From assembly GCA_030374765.1 (NCBI GenBank), contig JARGXX010000097.1, positions 496,001 through 560,000 of the forward strand: a DNA stretch of 64,000 nt, in the 5' to 3' direction. A program made the position numbers and the translations under genes. A model generated the notes under the pieces. The model ran no database searches and was not told the origin of the DNA. It worked only from the letters and a program-made list of their open reading frames with translations. Positions 21,290-64,000 of this stretch are shown in pieces (within the stretch, counting starts at the first letter, position 1; the number at the start of each line of letters is the position of its first letter). The DNA comes from Agarophyton chilense. Taxonomy: Eukaryota > Rhodophyta > Florideophyceae > Gracilariales > Gracilariaceae.

Positions 21290-21314
21290 CACGCGTAGCC
21301 GTTCCGTCAATGAC

Positions 21315-23384
21315 GTGGTGCCTGCGGACCCTGGAAGGGTTCCCCCGCCGTTACCTCAAGCCGCTCCGAAAGGCAAGAGTAAGGGGTCGAAGTCCTCCAA
21401 GAACAACAAGCTACCGCCTAAGGCGTCGAAGAATGGACCCAATTCTGGTGCTGGACCGGCCCCTGCCGTGGATGACCCGGCTCTTGCCGACGAAAAGGCC
21501 CAGAAAAACGAGTTCCACATCGACAACAACTCAAGTGTGAGGCAGCAGATCCGCGTAATGCGGGAAGCGCACAATGCCTTCGTGGAAGAGTTCGAAGCCC
21601 TGCGTTCCAGGTGTGATGGCTCTTCTATGAAGGAAGTGGTTGACGACCTCCGCTTGTTGCGGGCGGACGTCAACACCCTGTTGGAATGCTTTGGTGGTCC
21701 CGCCGCTTACGTGGAAGGTGTCGAGACCCGATTCAATCGTGTTAGCGCCCGTCTCCAGACGTTAGAACAAACCATCTTGATGGAAGACGTCCCGGAGAAG
21801 CCGGTTGCTGTGTCGCACCAAGCGAAACACGAGAGGAAAAGGGACGATACCCGCCGTCGGCGTGGAAAGCGTGACAGCGATGACTCGGACTCGTCGAACT
21901 CCTCACGGTCGTCGCGTGGCTCTCACCATTCAAATGGGTCGGACTCGTCAGATTCGTCTTCTGACGATGGCCATCGCAGGCGTTCATCCCGTTCTAAACG
22001 GTCGTCTGCCACCCAAGGTGTGATCCGCGCCCGCGAGAAGGAAAGGAAACACTCCGGGTTGAAGGAGCTGAAATGCACCAACCCCCTGTACAAGAAGTTG
22101 GTTTCTTACCGATACTATCGGCTAGAGAACTTCTCTTTGGATCGCACGCCCCTTGGCACGGGTAGAGTGAAGGATTGCATAAAGCGTATGCAACTGTCCC
22201 TCAGGAACCAGAGCTTTTATGGAGAAGAACCCATTTTGGTGTTGGATTTCCTTGCCAGGTTCGTCGCCGAAGCGGATATTCTCGGTATGACCGAAGGACA
22301 GGCGTTTATTGCACTCCTTTACTTTATGAAAGGCCTCGCCGAGGATCAATACAACTCTGTAAGAGGTTCGTCTAGAGCCTCCGAAGGAGGGGTAACCTGC
22401 TGGCCAGAAGCAGTACAATACCTCTTGAGGTCCTACGCCACTAATTACGCGATTCAGTCGGCCATTCTCGCTCTTCGCGATACGCGCCAGAAGTCTAAAG
22501 AAACGGAAACCGAATTCTCGGTGCGCCTGAACAAGGCTTTCCCCCGTAGTGGGAACGTACACTCCGCCGGAGAGCGCTGCACCATGTTCATCGATGGACT
22601 GGACCCCGCTATCCGAATACTCGTGGCCCGTTACCGGGAAGACCGAAGGAAGACCACGTATCTGGAGTTGGTCCAACACGCGCAAGCGGAAGGTGACGCT
22701 TTAAGAGCTCGTGCCCCCGGACATAGGTCGCAAACCGCCAAGGCGTTGGTGATGGAAACAAAGTCACCATCCCTATCGCTGATTGCGAGTGAGCGCCCCC
22801 AACAGGAGTACGACAACGTACACTTCGCCCGAAGCGATATCCATTCGGTCCCGACAACCGAACTACCGTCTACGACGGACGACTCATATGACACGTCCCA
22901 GGATGGACCCCTGCTGTACGCAGACTCTCCCCGTGTTCATGGACCTCGCATCCCGTATTCAAACGGTGCGCTCCGACAGAGTCGCCCTGGATGGAAGGAT
23001 ACCCGCCAAGCGGTGAAGTTCAAGGATGCTCGCTCCGGTTTGCAGCCCTCACGCCAGGGACTCATATGCCACATATGCTACGAACACGCTCAAATTTCAC
23101 CGGACTGTATCCTCACCATGAGGGAAGTAGCCCGAGTAGTCGGTAATTATGAGGCGTTGACCCCAGTGGAAAAGCGGATTGTTCCGATGACGTCTTATCT
23201 TCGAGCGAAGATCGATTTTCCACGGAGTATTCCGGAGGCGAAACCGCGCAATGCGTTGCTTTACCCTGCCGAGCAGGCTTCCGACCACCGCCCCGTTCTT
23301 TCAAACCCAGCCGCTGGCGCCCCATTGCTAGTGGTTCAGGATTCTGAGGCCCCGCCCCAGGCGGATGGGACCCAGGAAAACTGA
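21315..23384 (+). CDS. Gypsy-2 copy A gag, 689 residues
   Basis: A long open frame whose N-terminal third is Lys/Pro-rich, followed by a possible coiled coil (residues 75-155) and a Ser/Arg/Asp-rich stretch (about 175-240, RRRGKRDSDDSDSSNSSRSS type). Residues about 300-480 read like a retrotransposon gag capsid domain (VLDFLARFVAEADILGMTEGQAFIALLYFMKGLA, YAIQSAILALRDTRQKSKETETEF, MFIDGLDPAI). A Cys/His group (CHICYEHAQISPDC, about residue 600) sits where a zinc knuckle would be, with unusual spacing. It would form the particle shell. The start at 21315 is the first ATG in frame after the repeat border. Matching gag of copy D lies outside the window. Confidence 0.75.
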   Translation: MVPADPGRVPPPLPQAAPKGKSKGSKSSKNNKLPPKASKNGPNSGAGPAPAVDDPALADEKAQKNEFHIDNNSSVRQQIRVMREAHNAFVEEFEALRSRCDGSSMKEVVDDLRLLRADVNTLLECFGGPAAYVEGVETRFNRVSARLQTLEQTILMEDVPEKPVAVSHQAKHERKRDDTRRRRGKRDSDDSDSSNSSRSSRGSHHSNGSDSSDSSSDDGHRRRSSRSKRSSATQGVIRAREKERKHSGLKELKCTNPLYKKLVSYRYYRLENFSLDRTPLGTGRVKDCIKRMQLSLRNQSFYGEEPILVLDFLARFVAEADILGMTEGQAFIALLYFMKGLAEDQYNSVRGSSRASEGGVTCWPEAVQYLLRSYATNYAIQSAILALRDTRQKSKETETEFSVRLNKAFPRSGNVHSAGERCTMFIDGLDPAIRILVARYREDRRKTTYLELVQHAQAEGDALRARAPGHRSQTAKALVMETKSPSLSLIASERPQQEYDNVHFARSDIHSVPTTELPSTTDDSYDTSQDGPLLYADSPRVHGPRIPYSNGALRQSRPGWKDTRQAVKFKDARSGLQPSRQGLICHICYEHAQISPDCILTMREVARVVGNYEALTPVEKRIVPMTSYLRAKIDFPRSIPEAKPRNALLYPAEQASDHRPVLSNPAAGAPLLVVQDSEAPPQADGTQEN

Positions 23385-23422
23385 TTTCGGGAGTCTCCCC
23401 TTCGGGAGAGGCGTCCCGAACA

Positions 23423-24139
23423 GTGAGGTTGACGGCGCCCAAGGCGTCCCCGCCTCGCTCCCCGGTCCAAATCCTCTCAAGGAAACAGGCCGTCTCAGAC
23501 GTGGACTCTGAACACTTTAGTGTTTTACCTCGACCGTGGAAACGGGTACATCACAACCGGTTCCCGGAAAGAGTCATAGTCATGACGAAGCGAAACTTTA
23601 AAGTTTACGCTGACCTAGGCCTTACTACCAAGTTCATGGTGCGTTTTCTCACTGTGTTGGATACAGGTACAGAACCGAACTTCGTCGTGGATTCTATCCT
23701 ACCACCTGCTTTGCAGTCGCACATCCGCCGTGGCGTAGCGTTAGACGCCGCTGACGCTGGTAACAACCCGTTAGAAACGGTTGGAGTGATCGATATGGTG
23801 GTACGCTTAGGACCCTGCGTCGTGAAGCTGCACTTTATTGTCTGTCGGTCACTCCCCGCCCCTCTCATCTTGGGTTGTGATTTTTGCGACCGTTTCGTCG
23901 AAGCGATTGTACCCCGCTTAAAGCGTGTGGAATTGGACGATGGATCCTCTGTTCCCATCGTCCGCCGTCCACCGAAGCGTACATCGAAGAAGAATGTTCC
24001 TCTTCCTGCTGCACAGGAGTTCCCCGCCGCTTTTCGCGAGTCTACAAAGCTTCGTGTCGACGAGTCGATTTGCATTCCGCCAAAGTCCCACTCTTGGGTG
24101 CGTGTCAGTTCTCGTCAGCACGGTACTCGAATCGTTTGA
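23423..24139 (+). CDS. Gypsy-2 copy A protease frame
   Basis: 238-residue frame with an aspartic-protease signature: FLTVLDTGTEPNFV (active-site DTG near residue 78) and a C-terminal LPAPLILGCDFCDRFV (flap/ILG motif). It starts 39 bp downstream of the gag stop in another phase, so in the family it may be made by frameshifting or as part of a longer polyprotein. It would cut the polyprotein during particle maturation. Confidence 0.7.
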   Translation: MRLTAPKASPPRSPVQILSRKQAVSDVDSEHFSVLPRPWKRVHHNRFPERVIVMTKRNFKVYADLGLTTKFMVRFLTVLDTGTEPNFVVDSILPPALQSHIRRGVALDAADAGNNPLETVGVIDMVVRLGPCVVKLHFIVCRSLPAPLILGCDFCDRFVEAIVPRLKRVELDDGSSVPIVRRPPKRTSKKNVPLPAAQEFPAAFRESTKLRVDESICIPPKSHSWVRVSSRQHGTRIV

Positions 24140-24418
24140 CCGATACCATCACTTTCGAACAGGCATCAACTCGCTTTCGCGGATGGAATGGTTCACATTG
24201 AGCCCGACAAGTCGTTTTGTGTATGTGTTTCCAACTTTGGAGAGAAACACCAGTATCTGGTTAGGAACCAAGTCATTGGAAGAGTTGCTCCTCACCCCAT
24301 GTCTATCTTTACCCTTCAAGGGGATCGTACTGGTTCAACCGGAATGGGTCACCCTGAGGAGGGGGATAATCTCGTCCGAGGTCCCTAGTCTACACTGAAC
24401 TTATCCACACTGCCGTGT

Positions 24419-27091
24419 GTGTCGCCACCAGCAGTACTGGTTAATTTATCCAATGGTTCTTGGATTGCTGTCATCGACTACCGTCGGTTCTGCACGACTG
24501 ACGTCGGAAAGATACCACCTCAGTTGGTGAATTTCAAAGCCCAGCCATTGCTGGATGGGCTACCGAATTGTTCGGATCATGAGAGTTGCTGGAACTCGTG
24601 GCTTTCAGTAATGCCTTCCGCTGTTCAGCGTTCGATGGCCTGCATACGCCCAAGGCGCAGAGGAGGGCCATTTAACAGAACTCTGGATGCTTCAGCCCCT
24701 CGCAACGAGGATGGTTCTCAGAATCCCTCGCATATTGCGGAAGTTCCCGTTTCTACGGTAGGGCTAGTCTATCCCATCCAGATGGTTGCTTTACCCGCCA
24801 AAAAGCGATTCCCGCTCTACAACCCACCCGTGGGACTCTCTGATATACCGATTCAATTGGACGCTGGCCTGAATGGCCTTTCTTCTCTCACGCCACTGCG
24901 CGGTGTCTATCCCCGCCAGTTGGGCGTTTCTATAACTCTTTATGCCACTCCGTCTAAGGAAGGGGAAGAGGATGTTGATTCTCGTCGAGAGACTGTTACC
25001 GCTTCGTCGCGTCATGATAACGGTGGTACACGGAGCTCTGGACACATCGAAATAGATATTGGTGGACGGAAAGCTTCGTCGACGGACGTGTCCTGCACTC
25101 ATCTGCACCGTGCCACTGATGCTGAGTCCTCTCGAGGAAGTTCTACCGCATCTGTGCACGATGGCACTCTCCACGGGGATTCTGGTTTGCAGAAAGCGCC
25201 ACGCAATGGAAAGGCTCCCGCCGAAGCGAAGTCGTTGCTGAATGTTAGTCGCGCTCGCGAAACATCACCGGCACCGCCGTTGGAAGACATTCGTGGTTCT
25301 TTGCATTTGCATCCCGTGAATCACGGTTCGCTTTCGACAGCATTGCTGGGTACTGAAAGGAATGCCCTCGTGGGCTCCCTTAAGCCGATCTCGTCCGACG
25401 GCTCAACTCGTATAGTACGGAAGGACATACCAGTTATACCGGGCAAGCACACCGTACCTCGCGAGGAAACCCAACCCAGGACACTGGAATCTGATGTCGA
25501 TCAACCGCAAATGTGCGAGAGAAACCCGAATGTCTCGGTTGTTACCAAAACTGTCGTCGTGGTCGCAAGGGTCAGTCCGGATGCTTTACACGTTGAAGAT
25601 GACGGAGGGCAGCCCGACATTCCGTGTTATGATGGAACTACGCTAGTCATAACATCCACTCTGGATCTTTTGCCCTTTTGGGGAAGGTCTACCGCTTTTG
25701 TGTCGGATGGTGCCCACCAATGGGATTCAACATCTGTTGTCTTGCCACAAAGTGGAAAATCTCTCGCCGAAGCGATCTTGTCGAAGGATTATTTTCGCGC
25801 TTGCGACACTGAACCGGCTGTGCCGTCGAGCGTTGATCCGCAGCCCGTGGGTCACGGTTCGTCGACACTAGCTACGCTGGACACTACAGAGCAGGCCCTC
25901 TCGGGATCCTCTGAGCCGACTACACCGGAAGTGTGGACACCAACTGCACGGCAGGATACACCGGCTAGGCCGGGCAAGCACACCGTACAGGACGGGAGAA
26001 ACACACCCAGCACGCTTGACACTGGTTCAGGACGCTCGCGCAGTCGCGGATACAGTCCGATTGTCTCGGTTGACCCCGACAGTATTGTCGAAGTCGCACC
26101 GGTCACTCCGGAGAACGGAAACGTCGATGACGGAAGCACCTCGTCGCCGAGTGAAGTTGGACCCTCGAGAGGGATAGTTTGTGACGACCTTGCTTCCCAG
26201 AGGGACAATTCGCAGGAAAAGTCACAGCACGTTCGTGATGGAGACACGGTTGAGCCGGAGATGCACGCCCGACGTGGTACTTTGTCGCCGAAGCTAGCCG
26301 ACACACCGGCAACGCCGTTGCACACGCCCTCACGGGAGGAGGCGGAACGCAGCACGGCGCGGAGCGCTCCCAGCCATCAGCTGGTCACGTCCCGTGACCA
26401 AGTGGCACCCGACAGGGGAGATGCACCAATAGGCGCTCGAGGCGATTCAACCGTCAAGAGACGACGCCCCGTGGCAAAACCGCCTCCTGCGTCAAGTTCA
26501 TCACCGTCGCGACGGATTCCACTAAGGAAACTCGCGGAGAGCGATCCAGAAATCCAGCTTTGGGATGAGTCCGCGTTCCCCCGAAGGGTGGTTTCTGCAC
26601 GAGAAGTCTCGGTAAGCTCCCCGACCCGAAAACTGGGAGAATTGCCCTATGGGAAGGCCTTCGGCCGAAGCCGTCGAAATGACGATTCTTGTCACGACGC
26701 CATGGCGGAAGTACCACGCCAAGCGGTCAAAGCCTCCCAGAAACCGGTTTGTATCCGTACCCGGGTCAAGGAAAGGCCGTACCAAGCCGTGGACCCCTGC
26801 GGGGACGGACACAGTAGCCCACACGCGATGGCGGAAAACTGCCAGTATGGCACTGTGACACAGGCACGGCAGGGCCGGAAATTCTACGACCACTTCGTTA
26901 TCGACCACGTCGTGGAGCATTCTTACCATCGGGATGGTTACATACAGTATCGCGTCCGTTGGCACGGGTTGGGTCGCGAATGGGATTCCATTGAGCCAAT
27001 GCAGCACCTCCCACGTTCTAAAGTGGTTTCATATCACTGCAGGACGCGGACGGGAATCCCGGCATCGGTGGTGAAAGCCCAAGTGGGATAG
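24419..27091 (+). CDS. Gypsy-2 copy A linker-chromodomain frame, 890 residues
   Basis: Open frame. A short N-terminal trace (SWIAVIDYRRF, matching SWRFCIDYRRL of copy D) is all that remains of reverse transcriptase. Most of it is a low-complexity Ser/Pro/Thr/Arg linker that also occurs in copy D after integrase (LNGLSSLTP.RGVYPR..GVS, SSRHDN, PVGHGSST). The last 70 residues are a chromodomain (FVIDHVVEHSYHRDGYIQYRVRWHGLGREWDSIEPMQHLP), a module that guides integration toward marked chromatin. The linker holds a diverged internal duplication with a period of about 532 bp (25310 and 25841), of which copy D has one unit. That such a long frame stays open without the catalytic core is unusual. 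Confidence 0.72.
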   Translation: MSPPAVLVNLSNGSWIAVIDYRRFCTTDVGKIPPQLVNFKAQPLLDGLPNCSDHESCWNSWLSVMPSAVQRSMACIRPRRRGGPFNRTLDASAPRNEDGSQNPSHIAEVPVSTVGLVYPIQMVALPAKKRFPLYNPPVGLSDIPIQLDAGLNGLSSLTPLRGVYPRQLGVSITLYATPSKEGEEDVDSRRETVTASSRHDNGGTRSSGHIEIDIGGRKASSTDVSCTHLHRATDAESSRGSSTASVHDGTLHGDSGLQKAPRNGKAPAEAKSLLNVSRARETSPAPPLEDIRGSLHLHPVNHGSLSTALLGTERNALVGSLKPISSDGSTRIVRKDIPVIPGKHTVPREETQPRTLESDVDQPQMCERNPNVSVVTKTVVVVARVSPDALHVEDDGGQPDIPCYDGTTLVITSTLDLLPFWGRSTAFVSDGAHQWDSTSVVLPQSGKSLAEAILSKDYFRACDTEPAVPSSVDPQPVGHGSSTLATLDTTEQALSGSSEPTTPEVWTPTARQDTPARPGKHTVQDGRNTPSTLDTGSGRSRSRGYSPIVSVDPDSIVEVAPVTPENGNVDDGSTSSPSEVGPSRGIVCDDLASQRDNSQEKSQHVRDGDTVEPEMHARRGTLSPKLADTPATPLHTPSREEAERSTARSAPSHQLVTSRDQVAPDRGDAPIGARGDSTVKRRRPVAKPPPASSSSPSRRIPLRKLAESDPEIQLWDESAFPRRVVSAREVSVSSPTRKLGELPYGKAFGRSRRNDDSCHDAMAEVPRQAVKASQKPVCIRTRVKERPYQAVDPCGDGHSSPHAMAENCQYGTVTQARQGRKFYDHFVIDHVVEHSYHRDGYIQYRVRWHGLGREWDSIEPMQHLPRSKVVSYHCRTRTGIPASVVKAQVG

Positions 27092-27099
27092 TAGCCCAC

Positions 27100-28565
27100 C
27101 TTGGTGGAGAGAAGGAGAACTATGGTTGTTTGGTCGGAAATGGAGAAGAAGGAGTATGGTTGGCTTTGTTATTCATGCCGTTCATACAGGAGTGGCTCTC
27201 ACTTGGTGTGAGGTCACAATAATGCTCGCTCTTAGCGGTCGGGTACCGACTGTTGTCGTGTCTGATCGCCCCTTTCGTTTTCGGTTGTTTACACTTGATT
27301 GGTTTTTCATCCAGCTTGCTGGTTCACGATTGCTTCTGTGATCCGTAATCACGGTTTTTCCCCATTCGTTATGGTGTACAACAACCGATGGCACCGTTTC
27401 TTGATCAGCTTTGTTGCGGCTGGTCGCCCACGAGTCGTGGTGGTGAAGCCCCATACTTGGGATGTGGACTTGGTCCATCACCGTTTCGCGGGTGCTACTG
27501 TACACTACAGGTCACCTGGAGACCTTCCTCGTTTGTTTATTAATCGTTCAGAACGATTCGGCTCCCCGTTTGCTTACGGTTGCTTTCTCCGGAATCGGAT
27601 GTTTCATCTCTACAGTAATACCTGGATTCCAGTTGCGGAAACCCCGTTACTCCAGGAATACTACTCTGATTCGGATGAGACTTGTACACAGACTATTCTA
27701 GAGATAAACAAGCGCCTTGGCGAAGACGGAACCCAATTATCTTGGAAAACGTCAGAGATATGACATCTTTTCAGTTTGCCGCTCTATTCTTATCCTGAAC
27801 TGAAACAGGTCGCGACTTCCCACTTAATGGTGTTCAATCTTCCCATTCTTAGGTGCAATTGCAAGTTCTGTTTCTTGTGAGTACGCCGACTAGTTGGGTT
27901 AGTGCCAGGACTTTTGCATCTGAAGTTATCCGCGTTTTGCGTTGTGGACCGCTTTGAACCCGGTAATCCTGGTTTGGACCGGTGGAAAAACCGCCCGTCC
28001 GCGGGAAGCTGGAACTCGGTTCGAGACAAGATCTCCCTTGGGAGTTAGTAGACAACACGGGAAGGACACTGGAAGTCAAGACCCACGACACCGGGCACTA
28101 GCCGTGTTGACGAAGCTCGTGCGCTCCTACCCTTGCGGGGGGGAGGTGGTCCGATGATTTGGTGGCCGCGTACTCTCTCAGGGAGGAATCGGAACGCCTC
28201 AGGGAGGAATGTGAAGGCTATGAGACTGACAAAAACACCTCATGGAGGGATATACCGCGCAAGCAGAGGTGGAACACAACCGAACAATCGGGATGGCGGA
28301 CTACAGTATCCACAACAAGGGAACCCGACAAGGAATGGTCGTGAAACTTGGTGATTGCGCCTCACTCTTGTTGATGATCCCAACCGCAACTCGCGGGGCG
28401 CACTGCGATCGCAGATAGAATTTCTCTCTCATGAGGATGAGCCGATAAAATCGGAGTGGATTCGCTCAAGGCGGAGGTGTCTACCGGTTACAGAAATGTG
28501 GACGTGCACAGCGGATGTATTCCCGACGGCGTCGACGTCCCTCGTCGAGGTTGTCGCTCCGTCTG
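27100..28565 (+). other. Variable region of copy A between chromodomain and 3' LTR
   Basis: After the shared CCCACCTTGGTGGA just past the pol stop, copy A and copy D stop matching until the polypurine tract. Copy A holds a 154-codon plus-strand frame (27299-27763, with WHRFLISFV, PHTWDVDLVHHRF, MFHLYSNTWIP) that I cannot assign; shorter frames on both strands follow. No signal peptide or membrane segment is obvious. The corresponding region of copy D (57314-59465) carries an unrelated antisense frame. Confidence 0.5.
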
Positions 28566-28577
28566 AGAAGGGGGATA

Positions 28578-29306
28578 TGTGGTGCACGCCCTCTGGGAGG
28601 GGTTCTGAAGGACTTAGTAGTTTTCCCGAAACATTCGGATGCGCAGGGCGTAGCTGCAGCGCGCCGTGGCCCCGACTTGGGTGCAACTGACACACGTGTA
28701 ACGTGGTTGGCCAAGGAGAGGCTGGCACAGCATTGCTGGATATGTTCTCTATTTATTTAGATTTATTACACTAGGTTAGGGAGTTTTCTACAGTACTCTA
28801 CACTATATAGTGCCAGGGCGATCTCGCCCTGACACTCAGTAAACTTCCCCAACCAGGGTTCTTGGCTCTAAGTCTTTTTCCGCTTTCGCGAGTCTTCCAC
28901 ACTCTACAGAGGTGAAGCCGCGTTACTAACGGTAGACTTATCCACCCTGCGTCAACAGGAGACTCACCGCTGTTAGCGTGTATGTCTTTCATACCACTGC
29001 CGTGTTCTCGCCCCAGTATTGGGTTTGCTACATATTTCTTTTGGCTCTCGTGGCCCATGCCCCCGATTGCCCCCACTGGGTGGTCCCCCCTTTTATCACT
29101 TGCCCACTCCCGTGGAATACAGCTCATACCTGGTCTGCTCCCTTCTAGCATCCCGCACTCTCCCCGCTTGGCGTGCCGGTGAACCTCAGCCTTACACCCC
29201 GACTTAGTCGTGTTCACTCCGGAGAGGCTCCGTCGCCGTGCTACCCTCCTTGGAGGAAGACTCGGACATCTTCGTGTGTTTCCGCCGCCCTTGGCGTTGC
29301 ACTACA
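28578..29306 (+). repeat. 3' LTR of Gypsy-2 copy A
   Basis: 729 bp, TGTGGTGCACG at the start, GCACTACA at the end. Ends were set by alignment with the solo LTR at 38736-39599 and with the LTR of copy D. It has a 12-bp palindrome CACTATATAGTG (28801-28812) followed by a stem CAGGGCGA/TCGCCCTG (28814-28831). It abuts a Copia fragment at 29307. Confidence 0.8.
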
Positions 29307-51464: not shown

Positions 51465-51714
51465 TGATGGAACAGCATTGGCATAGCTCCCTTGGAGAAG
51501 CTTGTTGATAGAAGATATGAATTTGCGGTCCCTCGTTTGTTTTGATTAATGTTACGATAGAAAGGCGAGGATAGTGATTGTAGGCACTTTAATGGCCCCC
51601 TGTGATTCTGGCTACAAGGGATCTCCTATTTTTGCAGGGTTTACGGGAGATATAAAACCCACTACCTCGCCACCCTCTCAAACCGAGGATAGGCAACGAC
51701 TGTTTGTTTGAACA
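51465..51714 (+). repeat. 5' LTR of Copia-E
   Basis: 250 bp, TGATGGAAC...TTGAACA, with a TATA box (GATATAAAACC) near 51650. Confidence 0.85.
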
Positions 51715-51716
51715 AG

Positions 51717-51726
51717 TGGTAGCATC
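51717..51726 (+). promoter_or_regulatory. Primer-binding site of Copia-E
   Basis: TGGTAGCATC, two bases after the LTR. The first eight bases match the complement of the 3' end of eukaryotic initiator tRNA-Met (TGGTAGCAGAGG), so this element uses the ordinary 3'-end priming, unlike Copia-1/2. Confidence 0.55.
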
Positions 51727-54700
51727 GCAGCGAACAGTTTTTTTCACACAGAACAACCATGGACGAGGATCTTTCGAAGAAGAGTCCACGCTATTACGCT
51801 TGTCATGGGGAGGATTTTACGTTATGGACTATGCGATTTGAAGCACTGCTCGACTCAAAGGAGCTGCTGTAAATTGTGACGCGCAACGTCCTAGGAGAAG
51901 ATGTTAGTCAACATGTACCGAATGATTTGGCATTGAAGATCTCTAAAGCCCGGATGTACCTCGTGCAATGTCTTGGTGATAAGCCATTGAGAACTATTGC
52001 AACTGAAAGAAATAATCCGTATACAATGTATCAAAAGCTCCGGGAGAGGTATGCAACAATGAATGCCGCTACTAGGGTCCAACTACAGACAAAACTGCAC
52101 AACATAAAATACGTTCCAGGCAAGACAATGTCCGAGTTTGTTGGTGAGTTTGAATCGGTCTTCAGTAGGCTCGAAGGAATGAGCAGCCCTGTAGAAGAGT
52201 CAATGCAAGTAGCAATACTACTCTCAAGCTTTGGGGACATAGATGAGACGGTGTATGGCGCGGTTATCTCAGCACTACAGACCATGCCAGAAGCAGAACT
52301 TACGTGGGAACGGGAAATTGCATGTCTTTTGCAGGCGTACGAATCTCGTATCTCCAATGCCACATCTTTTCATGAATCTGGAGTTTCTTTAGGCTCTGAG
52401 AAGGCTCTCAGATCAAATTTTCGGTGCAAATGTTTCAACTGCGGCCACACAGATGGAACACACACCAAGTAACGCAGTGGCACTTGGAGATGGTAGAAAG
52501 GTTCAGTCCACAATGATTGGTACTGTACGAATTGGTTTTAGAGACTTCGAAAGACCAGGTGCTATTGTGGTAGATCTTGAAGAAGTTCTGTTTGTCCCTG
52601 AGTTACAGTGCAACCTTCTTTCATGCGCAAAGCTTATTGAAGATGGGTTTCAAGTATCATTTTCCAGCTCAGGGTGCACGATTACCAAGGATGAGATGGT
52701 ACTACGTGGAAGTAAGGTTGGGGGACTGTATGAAGTACAAGGCAAAGCTCCAATTACTGCTTATGTTTCTTCGAACAGAAATAGGAACCTCGAATTATGG
52801 CATGAGCGCATTGGTCACATTGGAAAACGCAGAATCGAGAACATGTAGAGAACAGGAAACTTTTTAGGACTTGACCTAGATTCGAAACACTACAAGACGC
52901 GTGATTGTCAACCGTGCATTGAAGGGAAAATGACACGTCTCCCGTTATGCAGCAGACCAGATGAGGAGGTTGCAGTGGGAGAAGTCATATACTCTAACAT
53001 ATGTGGACCTTTCCAGACTGCGAGTATTATAGGAGAGAGGTTTTTTGTTTCCTTCATTGATAATTGATCTGGTTACAAAGGTGTTAGGCTCTTGAAAGAG
53101 CGGAGGGAACTCTCGAATGAATTCCGCTGCTTCCAATTGCCTTTTGAAAGACGAACGGAGAAGAGAATTAAACTACTCTACTCCGACAAAGGTCCAGAGA
53201 ACATTGGATTGAGGAAGTAACTAGAAGAAGAAGGAATCGATTGGGAAAATAGCGCACCATATACGCCACAGCAAAACGGTGTTGCTGAGCGTTTCAATCG
53301 AACTGTGATGGATATGGTGAGAACAATGCTCCACCATGCCTGTCTTCCGAACCGGTTCTGGGGCGAAGCTCTTGTTACTGACACTCGGCTGTTGAATATG
53401 ATCGGCGAAGATGGCGGATCCGGAGATACACCTTTCGAGACTGTATATGGATCTGCACCCTACGTAGGCCATATCAGATCTTTCGGATGCAAAGCATGGA
53501 TACATTTGGCACGTAGGAAGAAGCTAGACATAAAAGCCCGCCGGGGTATTCTACTTCGCGCTCTTAATCACCACAACTACCTTTTGTATGATATTGAGAA
53601 TGACTGTGCAACATTCGCCAGGCACTTTGTGATTAATGAGACAGTGTTCCCGGGGGTGGAAGGATTCGGGAAACAACCGAACCCCCTCGCAGGACTCCCT
53701 ACGTCCGTGCTGGAAACAGATGAGATCATGGAGGACACTGACCATAATGGGATACCCTTACACACCCCTTCGCCGTCATGGACAGGATAAAAATGAAAAT
53801 GATTTCAGCGCTACACGAGGAATTCACCTCGAAGAAAAGCCAGAGAAGCAGGCTGAAGAGGATAATGTGTCAATCACCCCAAGCATGCAAGAGATGCTGA
53901 CACACTATCCTGAGAGAAGATATCCTACGAGAGAGCGAAGAGCGCCACAGAAGTTTTCAGACACACAACATAATGGACTCGTTGGTCGCGAATTTGCCTT
54001 CGTGTCAGTACCAGAGACTGTGTTTGAGGCGCAAGCGTCATCTCACGCAAGACAGTGGATGTAAGCCATCAAGAACGAACTTCAAGCCTTAAGAATCATG
54101 GGTACATGGACTAGGGAGAAGACACCTCCAAATTCAAAGGTACTTGCGTCAAGATTTGTCTTTGCGATCAAGCTGTCACAAGATGGGTCAATACAGAAGT
54201 TCAAGGCACGGCCCGTTGCGAAAGGCTGCCAGCAAGGACACATGAACAGTGTCTATGCACCAGTGGTAGACTTTGAAACAGATCGGATTGCGTTGGCATT
54301 GGCACACAACAGAGGGTAACCTATAATCCAGCTGGATTTGAAGTCAGCGTTTTTGAATGGCATTATTGATGAGGAAGAACCAATATATATGTCACCACCA
54401 GAAGGAGTGGATTTAAATCTCCGACAAGATGAGTCCCTTTGTTTGCGCAGAGCTATATATGGATTGAAGCAGTCGAATTCAATTTGGAATAGAACATTCA
54501 AGAAAGCATTGCTCCAACTTGGTTTTAAACCTCTGAAGAGTGACAGTTGCTTATATGTACTTAAAAGGGATGAATCAGTGGTGTGGCTTATCGTATATGT
54601 CGATGACATCTTGCTCACGGGAGACAATGGCGCTTTGCTTGAAGAAGTTCAACAGAACTTGAAAAAGTATTTCGAAATTTGAACTGTCGATAACAAATCT

Positions 54701-55562
54701 AGTTTCTTGGGAGTTTACTTCGAACGAAACGGTCATGATGTGACTTTACACCAGCATCCAATGATACGAGGAGTTTTGGAGCGATTCAACATGGATGAGT
54801 CTCGTCCCATCAGCACGTCAATGGCATATGGAATCAGAGCATCTGCACTCAACTCTTCCGAGGAGTTTGTAGATCATGGGCTATATCAAGAATGCATGGG
54901 GTCTCTAATGTACTTGGCTAGTCGTACCAGGCCAGACATATGCGCATCAGTAAGCCTTTTGGCACGTGCACAGTCCAAGTCTACAGAAGTACACTGGAAG
55001 GCTGTCAAAAGGATACTACGATAACTGAATGGAACTCGAACGCTAGGAATAACATTGCAAAAGGCATCTCAAAGCGGTCACCCCTTCATCGCCTTTGCTG
55101 ATTCGGACTGGGCCGCAGACGATGTCAACCGGAAGTCTACTTCTGCCTATGTGATCAAGTTGTACGTAACCCCAATTATGTGGAAAACGCTCAAGCAAAA
55201 AGGTCTGGCAACATCAACGACGGAAGCAGAGTACATAGCTCTGTCAGAATGTATCAAAGCTATAAGATGGGCCCGATCCCTACTACTTGAGCTCCGTGTG
55301 CCAGAAGTGGACTCAGCAACTCCCGTCTTGGAAGACAACACAGGTGTATTACAGTGGATTCAAGGTGGGCGAAAAGATAAATATGTTGAGATCCGATATC
55401 ATTACGCTCGAGACGCTGTCAGTAAGGGTGGAGTCAAAGTGATATACTGCCCGACTCAAAGGATGATCGCAGATTTGTTCACACGAAACCACTCTTACGA
55501 ATACAACACAACTTTCTCTGCAGTTTGATGTCAATGAAGAAGAGCCATACCAATTGAGAGGA

Positions 55563-55812
55563 TGATGGAACGGCATTGGCATCGCTCCCTTGGAGAAGCT
55601 TGTTGATAGAAGAGATGAATTTGCGGTCCCTCGTCTGTGTTGATTAGTGTTACGATAGAAAGGCGAAGATAGTGATTGTAGGCACTGTAATGGCCTCCTG
55701 TGATTCTGGCTACAAGGGATCTCCTATTTTTGCAGGGTTTACCGGAGATATAAAACCTACTACCTCGCCACACTCTCAAACCGAGGAGAGGCAATGACTG
55801 TTTGATTGAACA
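55563..55812 (+). repeat. 3' LTR of Copia-E
   Basis: 250 bp, same ends as the 5' LTR; preceded by a short purine stretch (TTGAGAGGA). Confidence 0.85.
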
Positions 55813-56422: not shown

Positions 56423-57313
56423 TGGGTTAGGTGCGCTTGCTCCTTCAAGGAGGGTAGCACGGCGACGGAGCCTCTCCGGAGTGAACACGACTAAGTCGGG
56501 GTGTAAGGCCGAGGTTCACCGGCACGCCAAGCGGGGAGAGTGCGGGATGCTAGAAGGGAGCAGACCAGGTATGAGCTGTATTCCACGGGAGTGGGCAAGT
56601 CTCGAGATCGAGTAATGCACCCACAGGAGTGGCGGTAAACCCGGTAAGCCGGCGCGCGGCACACGCGCGAGCGGCACGAATAACCAACCACAAAGCAAAA
56701 GGGGGTGCTACCACGAGAGTGGGTAAGCGATAAAGGGGGGACCACCCAGTGGGGGCGATCGGGGGCATTGGCCACGGGAGCCAAAAGAAATATGTATCAA
56801 ACCCAATACTGAGGCGAGAACACGGCAGTGGTATGAAAGATATACACGCTAACAGCGGTGAGTCTCCTGTTGACGCAGGGTGGATAAGTCTACCTTTAGT
56901 AACGCGGCTTCACCTCCGTAGAGTGTGGAAGACTCGCGAAAGCGGAAAAAGACTTAGAGCCAAGAACCCTGGTTGGGGAAGTTTACTGAGTGTCAGGGCG
57001 AGATCGCCCTGGCACTATATAGTGTAGAATTCTGTAAAGAGCTCTCTAACCTAGTGTAATAAAGCTAAATAAATACAGAAATATCCAGCTATGCCGTGCC
57101 AACCTGTCCTGGGCCACCCGTGGTACCCGTGGGTAAGTCACACCCGAATGGGGGCCACGGCGCACGGCCGCCGGTGCACTTCGCGTACAACGCGTATACA
57201 CCTGGCTAGGCCAGCCCGCTAGTAGCGGTATTACTCATAGATCTCACAAGTATCGCCCGAGGCGGAAAAACAACCAAGTCCTGGAAAACGGCCCTCACGA
57301 GGGTTGCACTACA
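56423..57313 (-). repeat. 3' LTR of Gypsy-2 copy D
   Basis: 891 bp; minus strand starts TGTAGTGCAACC. It aligns with the LTR of copy A and the solo LTR. It carries an extra ~128-bp segment (56600-56727) bordered by the imperfect direct repeats GAGTGGGCAAG and GAGTGGGTAAG, absent from copy A. The low-coordinate end is set at the TG-complement next to the interrupted gene and is less certain. Confidence 0.75.
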
Positions 57314-57348
57314 TATCCCCCTCCTGAGGCGCGAGTACGACATCTGCG

Positions 57349-59286
57349 ATGGTGGGCGACGCGCCGAGACGAATGCATAAGAGTGCAACCAGCTCGCTGG
57401 GATCCACTTCATCCGATGCCAACAAACGCAGTGCGGCAAAACTCCAGTCTCCTGGCAACAACCGTTCTCAACGTTCCATTTCAACCGAATTCGCATCCTT
57501 GCGTGCCAGTCCTCCGATTCCTCGGCATCGTCTTTCGCTTCGCCGGTCTCCTCTTCCGGACATCCGGCCTCTTCGCTCACCGATGAGCAACCAAAACAAT
57601 CAACCCAACCGTCTCCCTGCGGGGTACTTCTCCGGCTTCCGGTCCGCTCCGCTTCTGCAAAGCGCGTCATCGGCTGCGCCGCAGATTCCTATCGCGAACG
57701 CGGCTGCTTCTCCGTACGGAATGTTACCCCCGAGAGGGTGGCCGCCATACGACATGCTTGTCGGGCGCCATCCTGGGCATCAGGCGTCCGTTCTCCGGCT
57801 TGCGCCGTGGTTCCACCCGATTGCGGTGTTAAACGAAGCGCTCATAGCAAGGTACACCGATGGAAACGGGATGCTTCCGGGCGATATTCCGGCCGTGGCG
57901 ACAACTTCGTTGGATTTGCGACGCCGCGTAGCAGTTCTGGTCCACGCTGTGGCGCGCCGGGGTAGTGAAACCTCGGCTTCCGCTCATGCGGCCTTCGTCT
58001 TTCTTGGCCTTCAACGGCTTCGCCGGGCTCCTTTCGAATATCCCATCCCCGATGGTCTCGGCACCGACATTCGGCTTTACCGCACTCAATGTGAGATTGG
58101 TTACGTGGACCGCCTGGCGGGTTTGGAAACACTCTCGTGGAGGGGCATCCCGATAGCACGGCAAGAGGCCATGTGCTGGACGCGACCGATTATCCGGGCA
58201 GAATTCCGCTACATGCGTCGACTTGCGCGGGCCAACTTCCTCGCCCTGATCCGCTTCGAGCGTCGGGCACGATCCCGATTCGGGTATTTGGTCCCTTATC
58301 AGAACGTGGAGATCGAACTCCTTCGCGTGGCCGACCGACGGGGTCGCTTTGTTCTCATTCCACCGTGGTGGTCGAACCTCGAGGCCTGCCGGGGCTGTTA
58401 CATCGAGCTGCCACCAGTCATCACTTATTACGGTTCGTACCTCATCGAGGATCCCGAGTCCGGACTGTGGTCCGTGGTGATTACCGAATGGGCAGTCCGC
58501 GCGGCGGTGTTCATCCTCTGGGAGGTGTATGACCAGTACAGACTGTGGTTCCTCCCGTTCCGGTTGAGGTCCGCGATTCGCAGCCTGGACCTGAGCATCC
58601 CACTTGGTGGAGTAACCAACGCCGAAGAAGTGGCGGGTCTTGTCGATTACATCGACCAGTTGGACTGGACCACCGTTCCGATTGAACAAAGCGGGCGCAC
58701 CGTGGGTAGCCGGGGTCAGGACTTGTCACCAGGAAGGCGTACTCCCTTGGGAGGTGATTTCGTATAGTTTGACCCTTGGGAAGGGCACGAAATCACCGCG
58801 GAGGAAGCGAACGAACTCCGGTTTGCACCACGCCATATCCCCGAGGGGCATCCGATCGGTTTTGTGGACGCGGATGAATATTACCACGTCTACGACGGCG
58901 ACGATCCAATGGTAGACAACGAACCCGACGACGGGGAATCGTACGCCGAGGCGGAGGTCGAGGGATCCGAAGCGGAAGGTCCCTATAACGCGGGGACGCC
59001 AGCCACGCCTTACGTGGATTTGGATAACCCCGCGGAGGCTGGGTCGGAGTACGTGGTAGCTGGACCACCTCCGGTTCCACCGGTGAATCTCCCAAGTGGT
59101 GGGGCGTCCGCCCCAGGCGATGCGAGCTCCGCTCCGGCGGGTCAAGCGGCCGTGATCTCCCAGTTTCTGCGACAGGTGGGGCTGGGGACCAACGCAGCGA
59201 GTGGCGATGTTGCCGCGATGCGCGAGGCCTTGATCACCCGCCTCCAGGGAGGTAACCAACCCGGGGGCGGTGAGCCGCACCCGTGA
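57349..59286 (+). CDS. Antisense reading frame between pol and 3' LTR of copy D
   Basis: On the strand opposite to pol a GC-rich frame covers almost the whole region, starting 36 bp from the LTR and ending 180 bp before the pol stop; about one break. The N-terminal ~110 residues are Arg/Ser/Pro/Asn-rich; the middle is ordinary globular-looking protein, rich in Trp, Arg and aromatic residues (HPIAVLNEALIARYTDGNG, RRVAVLVHAVARRGSETSASAHAAFVFLGLQRLRRAPFEYPI, RLARANFLALIRFERRARS, VVITEWAVRAAVFILWEVYDQYRLWFLPFRLRSAIRSLDL); the C-terminal ~140 residues are acidic, then Gly/Pro/Ala-rich. No zinc knuckle, protease or envelope-like membrane segment. I do not recognise it. The sense strand beneath is also partly open (57829-58689), so strand choice rests on length and composition. 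Antisense or additional ORFs at this position are known in some plant Gypsy elements. Confidence 0.5.
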
Positions 59287-59465
59287 CGGGGCACGCAATC
59301 CTGATGGGGAGTTTTCCCTTGTGACTTAGAGTAGTATCCCGAGTGCTCGGTATTCCATCGATAGCTTCGAATAAAAACTAAGTGACTTGTGTAACCCAAA
59401 ACCTTCCTTCACTAGCCTGTTCTCAAGCAAACCTACTTCTCTTTTCTCTTCCACCGAGGTGGGTT

Positions 59466-62400
59466 TTATCCTTCCTGGGCTTTAACAACCGATGCCGGGA
59501 TTCCCGTCCGCGTTCTGCGGTGATATGACACCACCTTCGAACGTGGGAGATGTTCCATCGGCTCATCCGAATCCCATTCGGGCCCTAAACCGTACCAACG
59601 GACGAGGTATTGAATATAACCATCCGGATGGTATGAGTGCTCCACTATGTGGTCGACCACGAACTCCTTCTCGTTGACTTCCCGCCCTTGAGGTGTACGC
59701 GTCACCGGACCAAACCGGGGTACGTCCGCAGGTGCGTGTGGGCTACTGTGCCCTTCCCCCGAGGGTTCCATGGGTTGGCGTTGCCTTTCCATGCCCTGGG
59801 TAGGGGAACGAACCGGGTTCCAGGTTGCCTTGGCCGCTTGGCGGGTTGCTTCCGCCAAGGCGTCATGACGAAGAGCGTCAGTTCGACGGCTTCGGCCGGA
59901 GACCTTCCCGTGGGGCAATTCTCCCAGTTTTTGGGTCGGAATGCTTTCCGAGAGTTCTCGTGCAGAGGCCACCCTTCGGGGGAACGCGGACTCATCCCAA
60001 GGCTGGGTTTCGCGGTCGCGTTCCGCGGGTCGTCGGGGTGAAATCCGTCGCGACGGTGCTGGACTTGACGCGGGAGGCGGTTTCATCACGGGGCGTTGTG
60101 CCTTGCCGGGTGAGCCGCCTTGGGCGCTGATTGGCGTACCTCCCGAGCCGGGTGTCGTCTGGTCACGTGACACGTCCGGCTGATGGCTGGGAGTACTCCG
60201 CGCCGTGCTGCCTTCCGCCTCCTCACGTGAGGGCGTGTGCAACGGCGCTGCCGGTATGTCCGCTCGCTTGGGCGACAAAGTACCGCGACGGGCGTGCAAC
60301 TCCGGGTCAACCGTGCCTTCCTCACCAACGGGCGGCGAAGTGCGCGGCGAGGAACCCCTGCGGGGAGCGAGTTCGTCCTCAACTATCCCTTTCGACGGTT
60401 CAACTTCACTCGGCGACGAGGTGCTTCCGTCCTTGACGGGCACATTCTCCGGGGTGACCGGTGCGCCTTCGACAACGCTGTCGGGGTCAACCGAGACACT
60501 CGGAGTGCGTCCGCCACTGCGCGTAGGTTCTGAACCAGCATCAAGCGTGCTGGGTGTGAATCTCCCGTCTGCTACGGTGTGCTTGCCCGGCTTAGCCAGT
60601 GTGTCCTGCCGTACAGTACGAGGGACCACTTCCGATCGATTCGGCCTAGAAAGGCCTGCGAGGGCGTGCTCTAAGTTTTCCAGCGTAGCTGGTGTCGACG
60701 AACCGTGACCCACGGGCTGCGGCTCAACGCTCGACGGCATAGCCGGTCCAGTATCGCGAGGGCGAACAGCATCCTGCGACGATTTCGGTTTCCCTTCGGC
60801 GAGAGGGTTTCCATTACGTGGTGCGTCCTGTCGAGTAGAGTCCCCGTGGGGAGTGCGATCAGACGCAGATGCGGTGGCGCTTCCCATAGAGGGTTCAGCA
60901 ACGGCTGTAGCGCGCAAATGCGGAGATGGAACGTCGGTAGATGGGACGTTTGGATCACCGTTGTTCTTGCTGGTGTGTCCAGGAGTCCGTGCACCACGGT
61001 TATCATGACGGGACGAAGCGGTTTCCGTCTCTCGACGAGAGTTATGAGCCTCCTCCCCCTCCTGAGACAGAGCGGCATGGGGAGTGGTTGAAACGCCCAA
61101 CGGGCGGGGGTAGACACCGCGCCGTGGCGTGAGAGAAGAGAGGCCATTCTGGCCTTGTTCCGATAAGATCGGCAAGTCAGAGAGTCCCCGGGTTGGGTGT
61201 GGTAACGCAGAAGGTCTGGAAACCACGGCAGTGGGCTGTGCCACTGTTGTGTGCCGAGCACCCTCATCCTCAGAGAGGGATTGTTGACCCATTTCGGTTA
61301 CTTCCAACGTCGGTGGCGGGGCGAGTACAACGCGGTCGCGGGAGATCCGCTCATGAGCGTCGACAATTTCCACCACGATGGTGTCGTCTTTCACCAAAAT
61401 GACCTTGTAAGGACCGTCCGCGACGGAAGAAAGCTTGTGCTTCTTCTCCTTTTCAGGGTTCCAGTACTGTTTACGGACGAAGACGAAGTCACCGGCTTTG
61501 ATTGGCGGGGCCTTACCGCGTACGCGAGAGTCGAAATCACGCTTGTAAGCGGCTTGGGCACGAGCCATCGAGCTTCGGGCGACCGGGATCAGCTTCGTAA
61601 GCCACTTTTTCCACCTGTGGCGATAATCCTTCACGGAAGGGAACGCATCCAGCGTGGGCTGGGGTTCTGACGCGACAGCGGGCGGAGGGCGGGGCGAGAC
61701 CAGTTCGAATGGAGTCAAGCCCGTAGTACGGTGTACCTGCGTATTGTACGCGAACGTCAAGGCGACAGTATATAAATCCCATGTCTTTGGGTGGTCGGCC
61801 CCGTAAGATCGGAGAGACGCTAATAGCGTTCGGTTAAACCGCTCCACTTGCCCATTACACTGGGGGTGATAGGTCGTTGTGAACAGGTTCTTGATGTCAA
61901 GAATCCTGCACACGTCCTCGAAGAATCGCGATGCAAACTGTTTTCCGTTATCGGATAGAAAATTAACCGGCGGGCCGTAGACAAATACCCAATGGGTTAC
62001 AAATGCTTGTGCAACCGTGAAAGCGGATATCTTCCGTAGAGGTACGGTCCGAACCAGTTTTGAGAAACGATCCGTGATAACGAGTAAAAACTTATGTCTA
62101 CGTCGTGTGGTGAGGAGCTTACCGAGGATGTCAATGGCGACAAACTCGAGAGGAGCCCGTGCCGGGAATAGTTTCAACTTCGCTGAGTACTTGCGAAGTT
62201 TCACCCGATTCTTAGCACATTCGGTACAAAACCGCACCGTTGCGTAGCAATCCACCGCCATGGCGGGCCAGTAGAAATTCCTTCGCAAAGTGAGGTAGAG
62301 CTTCCGTCCACCGGCGTGTCCACCAAGTGTCGCATTGTGCGATAGATGCAAAACTCTAGAATGTAGAGTATGCGGCACCACGACTTGTAGGGATAACTGA

Positions 62401-63991
62401 ACCGTCCTGACGAGGTATCCAAGATCGTTTACCTCGAAAGGGAGTTGTGCACCGCCATTAAGCCAGGCGCGAATCTTCGTACAGAAGGGGTCACCCTGCT
62501 GTTCTCTGACCATCTCCTCCGGGGGTATCGGCACAAAATTACCCGGCGGGGGTTTCTCTGAATCGTCCGAGACGAGAAATGCGTCAATATCATCATCTGA
62601 TTCCGGGCTTTCGTTCCATTTATCGTGTAACCAATCCGGGTCCCCCGGTGTTCCATCGTCTACGACGAAGCAAGGTATATCCTCGTCATCGACGGCTAGA
62701 GCTTCCCCATTCGTGGGTAAACGCGAGAGCGCGTCCGCTTGCGCGTTCTGAGTGCCCTTCTTGTAGATCACTTCAAAGTCATATTCCGCGAGGCGGAGTC
62801 TCCAACGCATTAAGCGGCCTGACGGCTCCGAGATGGTCATGAGCCATCGTAGGGACGAGTGATCCGTGTAAACGGTAAAGTGCACACCCATGAGGTAGGG
62901 GCGGAGTGTAGAGAGGGCCCACACAACTGCAAGGCACTCCTTCTCCGACACGGAGTACTTCCGCTCGTGGACATTGAGCGAGCGTGACCAGTACCCAATG
63001 GGTTTGCGTTCTCCTTCGGGAGTAGTTTGAAAGAGTGCACAGCCTACCTGGTAGTCGCTAGAGTCCGTGTCCACGGAAAAAGGTAGTCCTGGTTTCGGTA
63101 ACGATAGAATCGGTGCTGATGTGACAGCCTCCCTAAGGGAGTTAAAATCATCCGTCTGGGCGGACGTAAAGGGGCCAATTTAGGTGGTTGACCTTTCCGC
63201 AGAAGCGCGCTCAAAGGGGCCGCGATTTCAGCGAAGTTAGGGATAAACCGTCGGTAGACGTTGACCAATCCTAGAAAGGAGCGCAGTTCCGTCTGGGTAG
63301 CGGGTTCTTTCGCCTTGCGAAGGGACCTCACTCGAGCTTCCTCGATCATTACACGTCCCGGACGGATAATGTGCCCGAGATACTTCACAGTATCGGTAAA
63401 GAACTCACATTTCCTCAGTTTGAGGGTTATTCCAGCATCACGTAGCGTTGTCAATATGTCCCTGACATGGGTGAGATGGTCATCCAGATTGTCTGAGAAT
63501 ACAATGATATCGTCCAAATAGACGAGGCAAGTACGCCACTTAAAGCGGGCCAACAAAATGTCGATAGCACGCTGAAAGGTAGCGGGAGCATTGGTTAGAC
63601 CAAAAGGCATCCATTTGAAACGGTAGACTCCCGAGTGACAGACAAACGCAGTCTTATCTTGGTCCTCCTCCCTAACGGGAACCTGCCAATATCCCCAATT
63701 GGCGTCCAAAGCCATGAACACGGTAGCAGTGCCGAGAGAGTCGGTGTACTCATCCATTCGTGGGATCGGGTACACGTCCTTGACGGTAACATCATTCAAG
63801 CGACGGTAGTCGATGCAAAAGCGCCAGGACCCATCGGGTTTCGGAGCCAGTACCACTGGGGATGCCCACGGCGACTGAGCCGGTTCGATCACTCCAGCTC
63901 GGAGCATTTTGTCCACTTGGAAATGTTCCTCTTCTCGGGCATTGGGGCCTGCCCTGTAAGGGTGTTCAGCCACCGGTCGGGTGTTCGGCAA
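59466..63991 (-). CDS. Gypsy-2 copy D pol, N-terminus outside the window
   Basis: In order: reverse transcriptase (VIEPAQSPWASPVVLAPKPDG near 63880, FMALDANWGYWQVP, FGLTNAPATFQRAID, the YLDDIIVFS box near 63500), RNase H (DTDSSDYQVGCALFQ, KYSVSEKECLAVVWAL, YTDHSSLRWL, NAQADALSRLP; 63070-62710), integrase zinc finger (HNATLGGHAG..CTEC, 62340-62210) and core (VAIDILGKLL, LSDNGKQFAS, NGQVERFNRTLLASLRSYG; 62140-61790), a long Ser/Pro/Thr linker (61250-59750) and a chromodomain (VVDHIVEHSYHPDGYIQYLVRWYGLGPEWDSDEP; 59680-59560). The linker is nearly as long as integrase and is shared with copy A. About one break. The residue pattern at RT, RNase H and integrase catalytic sites looks normal. Confidence 0.9.
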
Positions 63992-64000
63992 TAAATCTAT

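What the first reader, a model, noticed from the sequence alone, without database searches (positions are those of the whole stretch)
57349..59286. Long antisense reading frame between pol and 3' LTR of a chromodomain Gypsy element
Seen: a frame of about 640 codons with about one break, on the strand opposite to pol, filling the space between chromodomain and LTR. Its product matches nothing I know. Known: some plant Gypsy lineages carry antisense or extra ORFs there. Inferred: it may be an accessory gene, expressed from the LTR in antisense or from its own promoter, or a captured host gene. This is my best candidate for something undescribed.
Basis: partly seen in the sequence, partly recalled or inferred. 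Interest (0 to 1): 0.75.

Follow-up and report, generated by a model that had tools for sequence, protein, structure and literature searches.

The report
Backward extra gene in seaweed retrotransposons
A family of jumping genes in a red seaweed carries a real, long-conserved extra protein gene written in the opposite direction between its enzyme gene and its end repeat; similar backward genes are known from plants and a fungus, but this protein resembles nothing in the libraries searched.

Summary
Window 57349-59286 (+) is one frame of 645 codon positions with a single TAG (58765), antisense to a chromodomain Gypsy pol, between chromodomain and 3' LTR. The host is a red alga (phycobilisome genes; nearest named relative from Gracilariopsis chorda). 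The frame is a real gene: related frames occur in five further sequence groups of the same genome (one seen only as a relic), in G. chorda (annotated hypothetical protein) and on five unnamed contigs. In 59 of 60 F1/F3 loci the pol tail lies downstream on the opposite strand. Between four families the core shows dN/dS 0.16-0.39 and identity at codon positions 1/2/3 of 55-72/65-80/35-45%; the ORF frame is the best conserved of six in each pair. The window's own copy is dead. No credible Pfam, NCBIfam, PHROG or PDB relative; both AlphaFold models were unusable. Best reading: an element-encoded accessory protein, expressed from an antisense promoter in the 3' LTR, probably a nuclear regulator or replication cofactor acting in trans. 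Gene and selection are shown; promoter, localisation and function are inferred. Antisense ORFs at this place are a known kind (Grande, RIRE2, Retand, Boty).

The parts
57349..58767 (+). antisense ORF, first part (472 codons: basic N-terminus, conserved core) up to an in-frame TAG
   Evidence: conserved core
58768..59286 (+). antisense ORF, remainder after the TAG (172 codons, acidic, with a short C-terminal motif conserved in F1, F2, F3 and G. chorda), ends with TGA
   Evidence: 15 of 30 fetched F1 loci have an open frame of 600 codons or more
59370..59375 (+). AATAAA in the antisense direction, 83 nt after the stop; possible poly(A) signal of an antisense mRNA (inferred)
   Evidence: sequence; AATAAA or ATTAAA at 82-84 nt in 11 of 15 F1 copies, at 59 nt in 21 of 22 F3 copies, none in the 205-400 nt searched of 3 F2 and the 163-270 nt held of 3 F4 copies
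57314..57326 (-). polypurine tract next to the 3' LTR
   Evidence: a like tract lies before the first ATG of the frame in the 8 copies of F1-F4 printed
56441..57313 (-). 3' LTR, lacking 49 nt at its outer end; proposed site of the antisense promoter (inferred)
   Evidence: 9 mismatches in 873 to the 5' LTR at G000:C97:561880-562801
59520..59663 (-). chromodomain at the C-terminus of pol
   Evidence: also in 5 of 5 other copies scanned, each below Pfam's cut-off
59466..63074 (-). pol: RNase H, integrase, Ser/Pro-rich linker, chromodomain
63075..64000 (-). pol: reverse transcriptase (the element continues past the window; gag remnant and 5' LTR lie at G000:C97:560828-562801)

Best explanation
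It is a genuine accessory protein gene of a chromodomain Ty3/Gypsy LTR retrotransposon lineage of red algae. An antisense promoter inside the 3' LTR (inferred) makes an mRNA running from the LTR towards pol, ending at a poly(A) signal in the short gap before the pol stop (inferred). The protein, about 590-650 residues in most open copies, has a basic N-terminal arm, a conserved core of about 320 residues and an acidic tail. It most likely works in trans, in the nucleus, on the element's own RNA, DNA or chromatin (regulating expression, RNA export or integration), as proposed for plant antisense ORFs. Shown: it is a conserved protein-coding gene of the element (about 0.95). Inferred: LTR-driven expression (about 0.75); nuclear regulator or cofactor rather than another role (about 0.45).
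For: Purifying selection between families: dN/dS 0.16-0.39 in nine copy pairs covering all six pairings of F1-F4; the ORF frame has the highest amino-acid identity of six frames in each pair. Within families pooled dN/dS is 0.56-0.67 in this frame and 0.86-1.46 in four of the other five. Fixed place and orientation: pol tail opposite and downstream in 59 of 60 F1/F3 loci; RT opposite for 69 of 80 F1 copies, mostly at 4.3-4.4 kb; F3 19 and F4 22 opposite pairs, no same-strand pair in F1, F3 or F4. Relatives outside the genome: G. chorda 47%, five proteins from unnamed contigs. The ATG lies 35 nt from the LTR in F1, and a polypyrimidine tract lies about 35-80 nt before the first ATG in the F2-F4 copies printed, so an unspliced mRNA would start in or beside the LTR. 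Possible poly(A) signal after the stop. Basic arm (pI 12.0), acidic tail (pI 4.1). A separate sense gag exists, so this is not a displaced gag.
Against: No transcript, promoter or localisation data. Recent changes within F1 are close to neutral (singletons 0.88, 0.75-1.06; variants in three or more copies 0.58, 0.32-1.13: not clearly below 1), as for the pol tail. dS between families is saturated (1.34-2.00), so omega values are rough. Frame -2 also looks constrained (0.53-0.77; in F2 slightly below the ORF frame), though it shares third positions and holds 19-25 stops. No poly(A) signal found for F2 and F4 in the stretches held. Locus L062 (F2) holds 831 nt past the stop without a pol match, and 11 of 80 F1 copies have no listed RT. 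No usable fold; no nuclear signal was tested. A non-autonomous element in the same window lacks the ORF, so it is probably not needed in cis.
Confidence: 0.5

Rival explanations
1. A structural or replication protein of the particle (nucleoprotein, capsid partner or the like) made from the antisense mRNA and packaged in trans.
For: Long conserved core with invariant charged and aromatic residues; the sense gag has only a sub-threshold Retrotrans_gag match (E = 0.011).
Against: A sense gag frame of about 756 codons exists in other copies. No capsid or nucleoprotein match in Pfam, PHROGs or PDB; the models are too poor to exclude one.
Confidence: 0.2
2. A captured host or viral gene that now serves the element (transduction), with a function carried over from its source, for example suppression of silencing.
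For: No similarity to other transposon proteins was found; orphan status fits capture from an unsampled source.
Against: It is present in the six sequence groups seen and has a G. chorda relative 62-63% identical to F3 copies. No host or viral homologue, all of which score or scan only part of what exists. Origin does not by itself give a function.
Confidence: 0.15
3. Antisense RNA is what matters (double-stranded RNA control of the element) and the frame is a passenger.
For: Antisense transcription reaching pol would pair with the genomic RNA; such roles are discussed for plant elements (PMC7264820, passages).
Against: A passenger frame would not keep amino acids while third positions saturate, or stay open for 600 codons or more in 43 of 66 loci.
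Confidence: 0.05
4. An envelope-like protein, or a gene of a second element inserted head to head.
For: Position between pol and 3' LTR is where env-like genes lie (PMC7264820, passages).
Against: Wrong strand for env; highest 19-residue hydropathy mean 1.57 in residues 1-472. Uniform spacing to pol in many copies and several families speaks against repeated chance nesting.
Confidence: 0.04

Closest known systems
[quoted passage not shown]
   Same: Same place and orientation, in most copies of a family, some conserved across species, product without known relatives (PMC7264820: passages, sections 5 and 7 read).
   Different: Different host group (red algae); chromodomain element.
Retand antisense ORFs with the TRP28 domain (PF04195)
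   Same: Antisense, between pol and 3' LTR, present across most clusters of a lineage (PMC11963269: passages, parts of the abstract included).
   Different: Retand is a non-chromovirus lineage; no PF04195 row among the Pfam matches of 16 members at E <= 10 or of four further relatives.
Boty and its antisense gene brtn (Botrytis, Sclerotinia)
   Same: A non-plant element with an antisense gene between pol and 3' LTR (PMC7264820 section 5; PMC8365987 passages; the original paper not seen).
   Different: Homology untested: brtn sequence not at hand.
HTLV-1 HBZ and antisense transcription from the 3' LTR of retroviruses
   Same: Works-like model: antisense promoter in the 3' LTR and a nuclear regulatory protein (as described in passages of PMC7264820 and PMC11963269).
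   Different: No homology claimed or tested; promoter and function here are inferred only.

Membership tests
Ty3/Gypsy LTR retrotransposon with chromodomain | RT, RNase H, integrase in Gypsy order | tested here: met
   Pfam RVT_1, RT_RNaseH, Integrase_H2C2, rve above cut-off, in this order
Ty3/Gypsy LTR retrotransposon with chromodomain | two LTRs and polypurine tract | tested here: met
   LTRs 98.97% identical over 873 nt, inverted ends TGTAGTGCAAC/GTTGCACTACA, tract; no target-site duplication seen for this copy, whose 3' LTR is truncated
Ty3/Gypsy LTR retrotransposon with chromodomain | chromodomain at the integrase C-terminus | tested here: inconclusive
   E = 8e-5 to 8e-4 in 6 of 6 proteins, each below Pfam's curated cut-off of 25.1 bits
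chromovirus clade | RT phylogeny within chromoviruses | not tested
   No tree was built; Ectocarpus chromodomain Gypsy lineages are reported not to be related to chromoviruses (PMC12477816, passage)
aORF-3R (antisense additional ORF between pol and 3' LTR) | position between pol and 3' LTR, opposite strand | tested here: met
   pol tail opposite in 59 of 60 F1/F3 loci
aORF-3R (antisense additional ORF between pol and 3' LTR) | kept in most copies with coding constraint | tested here: met
   68 of 76 typed F1 RT rows have a listed ORF; open in 43 of 66 loci; selection between families
aORF-3R (antisense additional ORF between pol and 3' LTR) | antisense transcription | not testable with these tools
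   no RNA data
Retand TRP28 proteins | PF04195 domain | tested here: not met
   no such row at E <= 10 for 16 members or P0003-P0006; HMMER's filters drop most matches above about 0.1
env-like third ORF | sense orientation | tested here: not met
   antisense
env-like third ORF | membrane segment | tested here: inconclusive
   hydropathy maximum 1.57 over residues 1-472; no dedicated predictor was run
Gag or capsid | capsid fold or Retrotrans_gag match | tested here: inconclusive
   no sequence match; AlphaFold models at mean pLDDT 38 and 48 unusable

The most novel reading that the evidence does not exclude
An ancient, previously undescribed protein family, perhaps of a new fold, has been carried antisense by a whole lineage of chromodomain Gypsy elements in red algae and in the unnamed organisms behind P0002-P0006; it is made from a bidirectional LTR and is a trans-acting regulator or replication factor that has diverged to about 30% identity while keeping some 20 invariant residues.
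Probability: 0.35. Interest if true: 0.75.

Novelty: new member of a known kind. Interest (0 to 1): 0.55.

Why it matters
Antisense genes of retrotransposons are described from plants and at least one fungal element, with functions not yet determined (PMC7264820). Finding one with no detectable relative, under clear purifying selection, in red algae suggests that LTR elements have repeatedly gained a protein made from the opposite strand, as HTLV did. More than 200 listed copies, divergent families and a conserved core in one 80 Mb genome make the question of what such proteins do testable by structure, localisation and strand-specific RNA.

Tried and rejected
Pfam, NCBIfam and PHROGs on the ORF family gave only noise or nothing; PDB by sequence gave nothing, or one chance-level row at E = 1.2. 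AlphaFold with 16 and 31 sequences gave mean pLDDT 38.2 and 47.8; Foldseek on the better model gave 16 hits, none with E <= 0.001, and I draw nothing from it. Three scans of viral contigs found no relative. I considered that the ORF replaces a missing gag, because the gag frame of the window copy is short; rejected because other copies have a gag frame of about 756 codons. I considered the overlapping sense-strand frames (298 codons in F1, up to 417 in F3) as the real gene; rejected because frame -1 is not conserved between families (23-38% against 42-65%). Frame -2 looks constrained within families (pooled 0.53-0.77, in F2 0.532 against 0.559 for the ORF frame) but shares third positions with the ORF and holds 19-25 stops.

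Full report
What is there. Opposite to it lies a Gypsy pol with RT, RNase H, integrase and a C-terminal chromodomain. The next 7 kb of the contig hold the gag end and the 5' LTR. The LTR of this family is about 922 nt with inverted ends TGTAGTGCAAC and GTTGCACTACA; the window's 3' LTR lacks 49 nt at its outer end, and the two LTRs differ at 9 of 873 positions. The ATG of the antisense frame lies 35 nt from the LTR, just past the polypurine tract. A frame this long was not reached in 2000 simulated sequences (maximum 422 against 479 codons).

Host. The genome (79.8 Mb, 135 contigs) has a plastid-like contig with phycobilisome proteins and phycobilisome linkers on six other contigs, and the nearest named relative of the ORF is from Gracilariopsis chorda. 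I infer a red alga, probably of the Gracilariales.

The frame is a family. A search of the own genome with the first 472 residues scored 90 of 1868 candidates: 80 rows of family F1 (the window's own at 100%, the others 90-96% identical) and 10 rows of 54-59% (F2). Of 71 F1 rows covering all 472 residues, 38 have no stop inside that stretch, the window's own among them. The G. chorda protein brought in a third family (F3, 71 of 1868 candidates scored) and P0002 a fourth (F4, 58 of the rows among 98 of 1693 scored); a relic (L069, F5) and a sixth group (F6) were seen later. Of 66 loci examined, 43 have an open frame of 600 codons or more, stop to stop: 15 of 30 F1, 3 of 3 F2, 22 of 30 F3, 3 of 3 F4. 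The F1 and F3 loci are the best-scoring 30 of their searches, and the F2 and F4 loci were picked because they were listed as open. Whole-length identity between families is 33-53%; G. chorda is 62-63% to F3. The last protein search, with an F4 copy, found P0003-P0006 at 47, 38, 31 and 29% over 91, 70, 56 and 59% of the query, all without a name; 21 columns stay invariant over the 13-row alignment. Database hits are few: 2, 2 and 4 in the three searches, each of which scored only about 8000 candidates.

It belongs to the element. In 59 of 60 F1 and F3 loci the pol tail lies downstream on the opposite strand; the exception, L033, has an opposite RT 2.25 kb away. Of the six F2 and F4 loci only L067 shows the pol tail; L062 holds 831 nt past the stop without a pol match, and the other four hold under 300 nt there; for one F4 copy the next 2.5 kb (L068) do hold an opposite RNase H frame. 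For F1, 69 of 80 ORF copies have an opposite RT within 9 kb and none a same-strand one on that side; 59 of the 68 counted lie at about 4.3-4.4 kb, and 8 of 76 F1 RT rows there have no listed ORF. For F3, 19 of 51 RT rows pair with a listed ORF, and for F4, 22 of 58 ORFs pair with a pol fragment; in neither is there a same-strand pair. The lists are truncated by the searches, so the fractions are lower bounds.

Selection. Between families the core of about 293 codons shows dN/dS 0.16-0.39 in nine copy pairs covering the six pairings of F1-F4 (not independent), with identity at codon positions 1/2/3 of 55-72, 65-80 and 35-45%. Amino-acid identity is 42-65% in the ORF frame and 20-38% in four of the other five frames; frame -2, which shares third positions, reaches 35-53% but has 20-30 stops per pair. 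dS is saturated (1.34-2.00), so the ratios are rough, but the pattern is that of a protein on the antisense strand. Within families, pooled dN/dS is 0.56-0.67 in this frame (15, 3, 22 and 3 open copies). Against this, frame -2 gives 0.53-0.77 there, and the youngest changes are nearly neutral: in 30 F1 copies singletons give 0.88 (0.75-1.06) and variants shared by three or more copies 0.58 (0.32-1.13); the pol tail behaves alike (0.92 and 0.84). Neutral drift of dead copies after insertion would explain this, but it means that selection is demonstrated on the lineages, not on present-day copies.

Anatomy and mechanism. In F1 the order is LTR, polypurine tract, ATG; in the F2, F3 and F4 copies printed, where LTR edges were not mapped, a like tract lies about 35-80 nt before the first ATG of the open frame. 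An unspliced mRNA for the frame would thus start in or at the LTR: an antisense promoter in the 3' LTR is the simplest reading, not shown. AATAAA or ATTAAA lies 82-84 nt after the stop in 11 of 15 open F1 copies and 59 nt after it in 21 of 22 F3 copies, in the short gap before the end of pol; F2 (0 of 3) and F4 (0 of 3) show none in the stretches held. Copies of one family are related, so these are few independent observations. The protein has a basic arm (pI 12.0), a core (pI 9.3) and an acidic tail (pI 4.1). A separate sense gag exists, with frames of about 756 codons in many other copies and a weak Retrotrans_gag match (E = 0.011, below the cut-off). A second element in the window (21288-29306) shares gag and LTR but shows no RT, integrase or antisense-ORF match: if it moved, the protein was not needed in cis. 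I therefore favour a trans-acting accessory protein, by analogy to what is proposed for plant antisense ORFs and described for retroviral antisense proteins (PMC7264820, sections 5 and 7 and passages; PMC11963269, passages). The analogy is no proof.

What is known. The review PMC7264820 lists Grande1, RIRE2, Retand, PvRetro13 and the fungal Boty as carriers of antisense ORFs between pol and 3' LTR, function not known. In Retand 97% of clusters have antisense ORFs with TRP28 (abstract); our family shows no such match. Library searches touching red algae, antisense ORFs and retrotransposons listed no title or abstract start that describes this; most papers were seen as listings only, a Gracilariopsis lemaneiformis genome paper in passages on repeats (PMC5970526), and subscription papers are mostly not held. 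Hence: a known kind of arrangement, an apparently undescribed protein family, a new host group as far as these searches reach.

The window copy itself looks dead: the TAG, a gag cut short compared with other copies, a pol frame that most other copies match only to about residue 279 of the RT query, and the truncated LTR.

Noticed in passing
window 21288-29306 (+): Second element with F1-like gag (91%) and LTR (99% and 91% in two pieces) but divergent linker-chromodomain (48-61%), no RT or integrase match, and about 1.5 kb of other sequence in place of the antisense ORF: a non-autonomous relative.
   Followed up: partly
window about 63160 (-): Most other copies match the window's RT query only to about residue 276-289 of 308, which suggests a frame change in this copy's pol near the RT-RNase H junction.
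   Followed up: no
L068 and 25 rows (F4): An F4 sub-population joins RNase H directly to the Ser/Pro-rich linker, apparently without integrase; at least one such copy keeps the antisense ORF beside it. Other F4 copies have a pol frame of about 1540 codons.
   Followed up: partly
L071 135-1730 (G000:C117): A sixth, distant group (F6) of the ORF with the same core motifs; its pol neighbourhood was not read.
   Followed up: partly
L031-L060, opposite strand of the ORF: Sense-strand frames of up to 411-417 codons lie over the ORF in F3; frame -1 is not conserved between families and may be a by-product of codon use.
   Followed up: partly
window about 51480-55800 (+): A degraded Copia-like element (recalled motifs, not tested) with similar stretches at both ends (near 51480 and 55590) lies next to the Gypsy element.
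   Followed up: no
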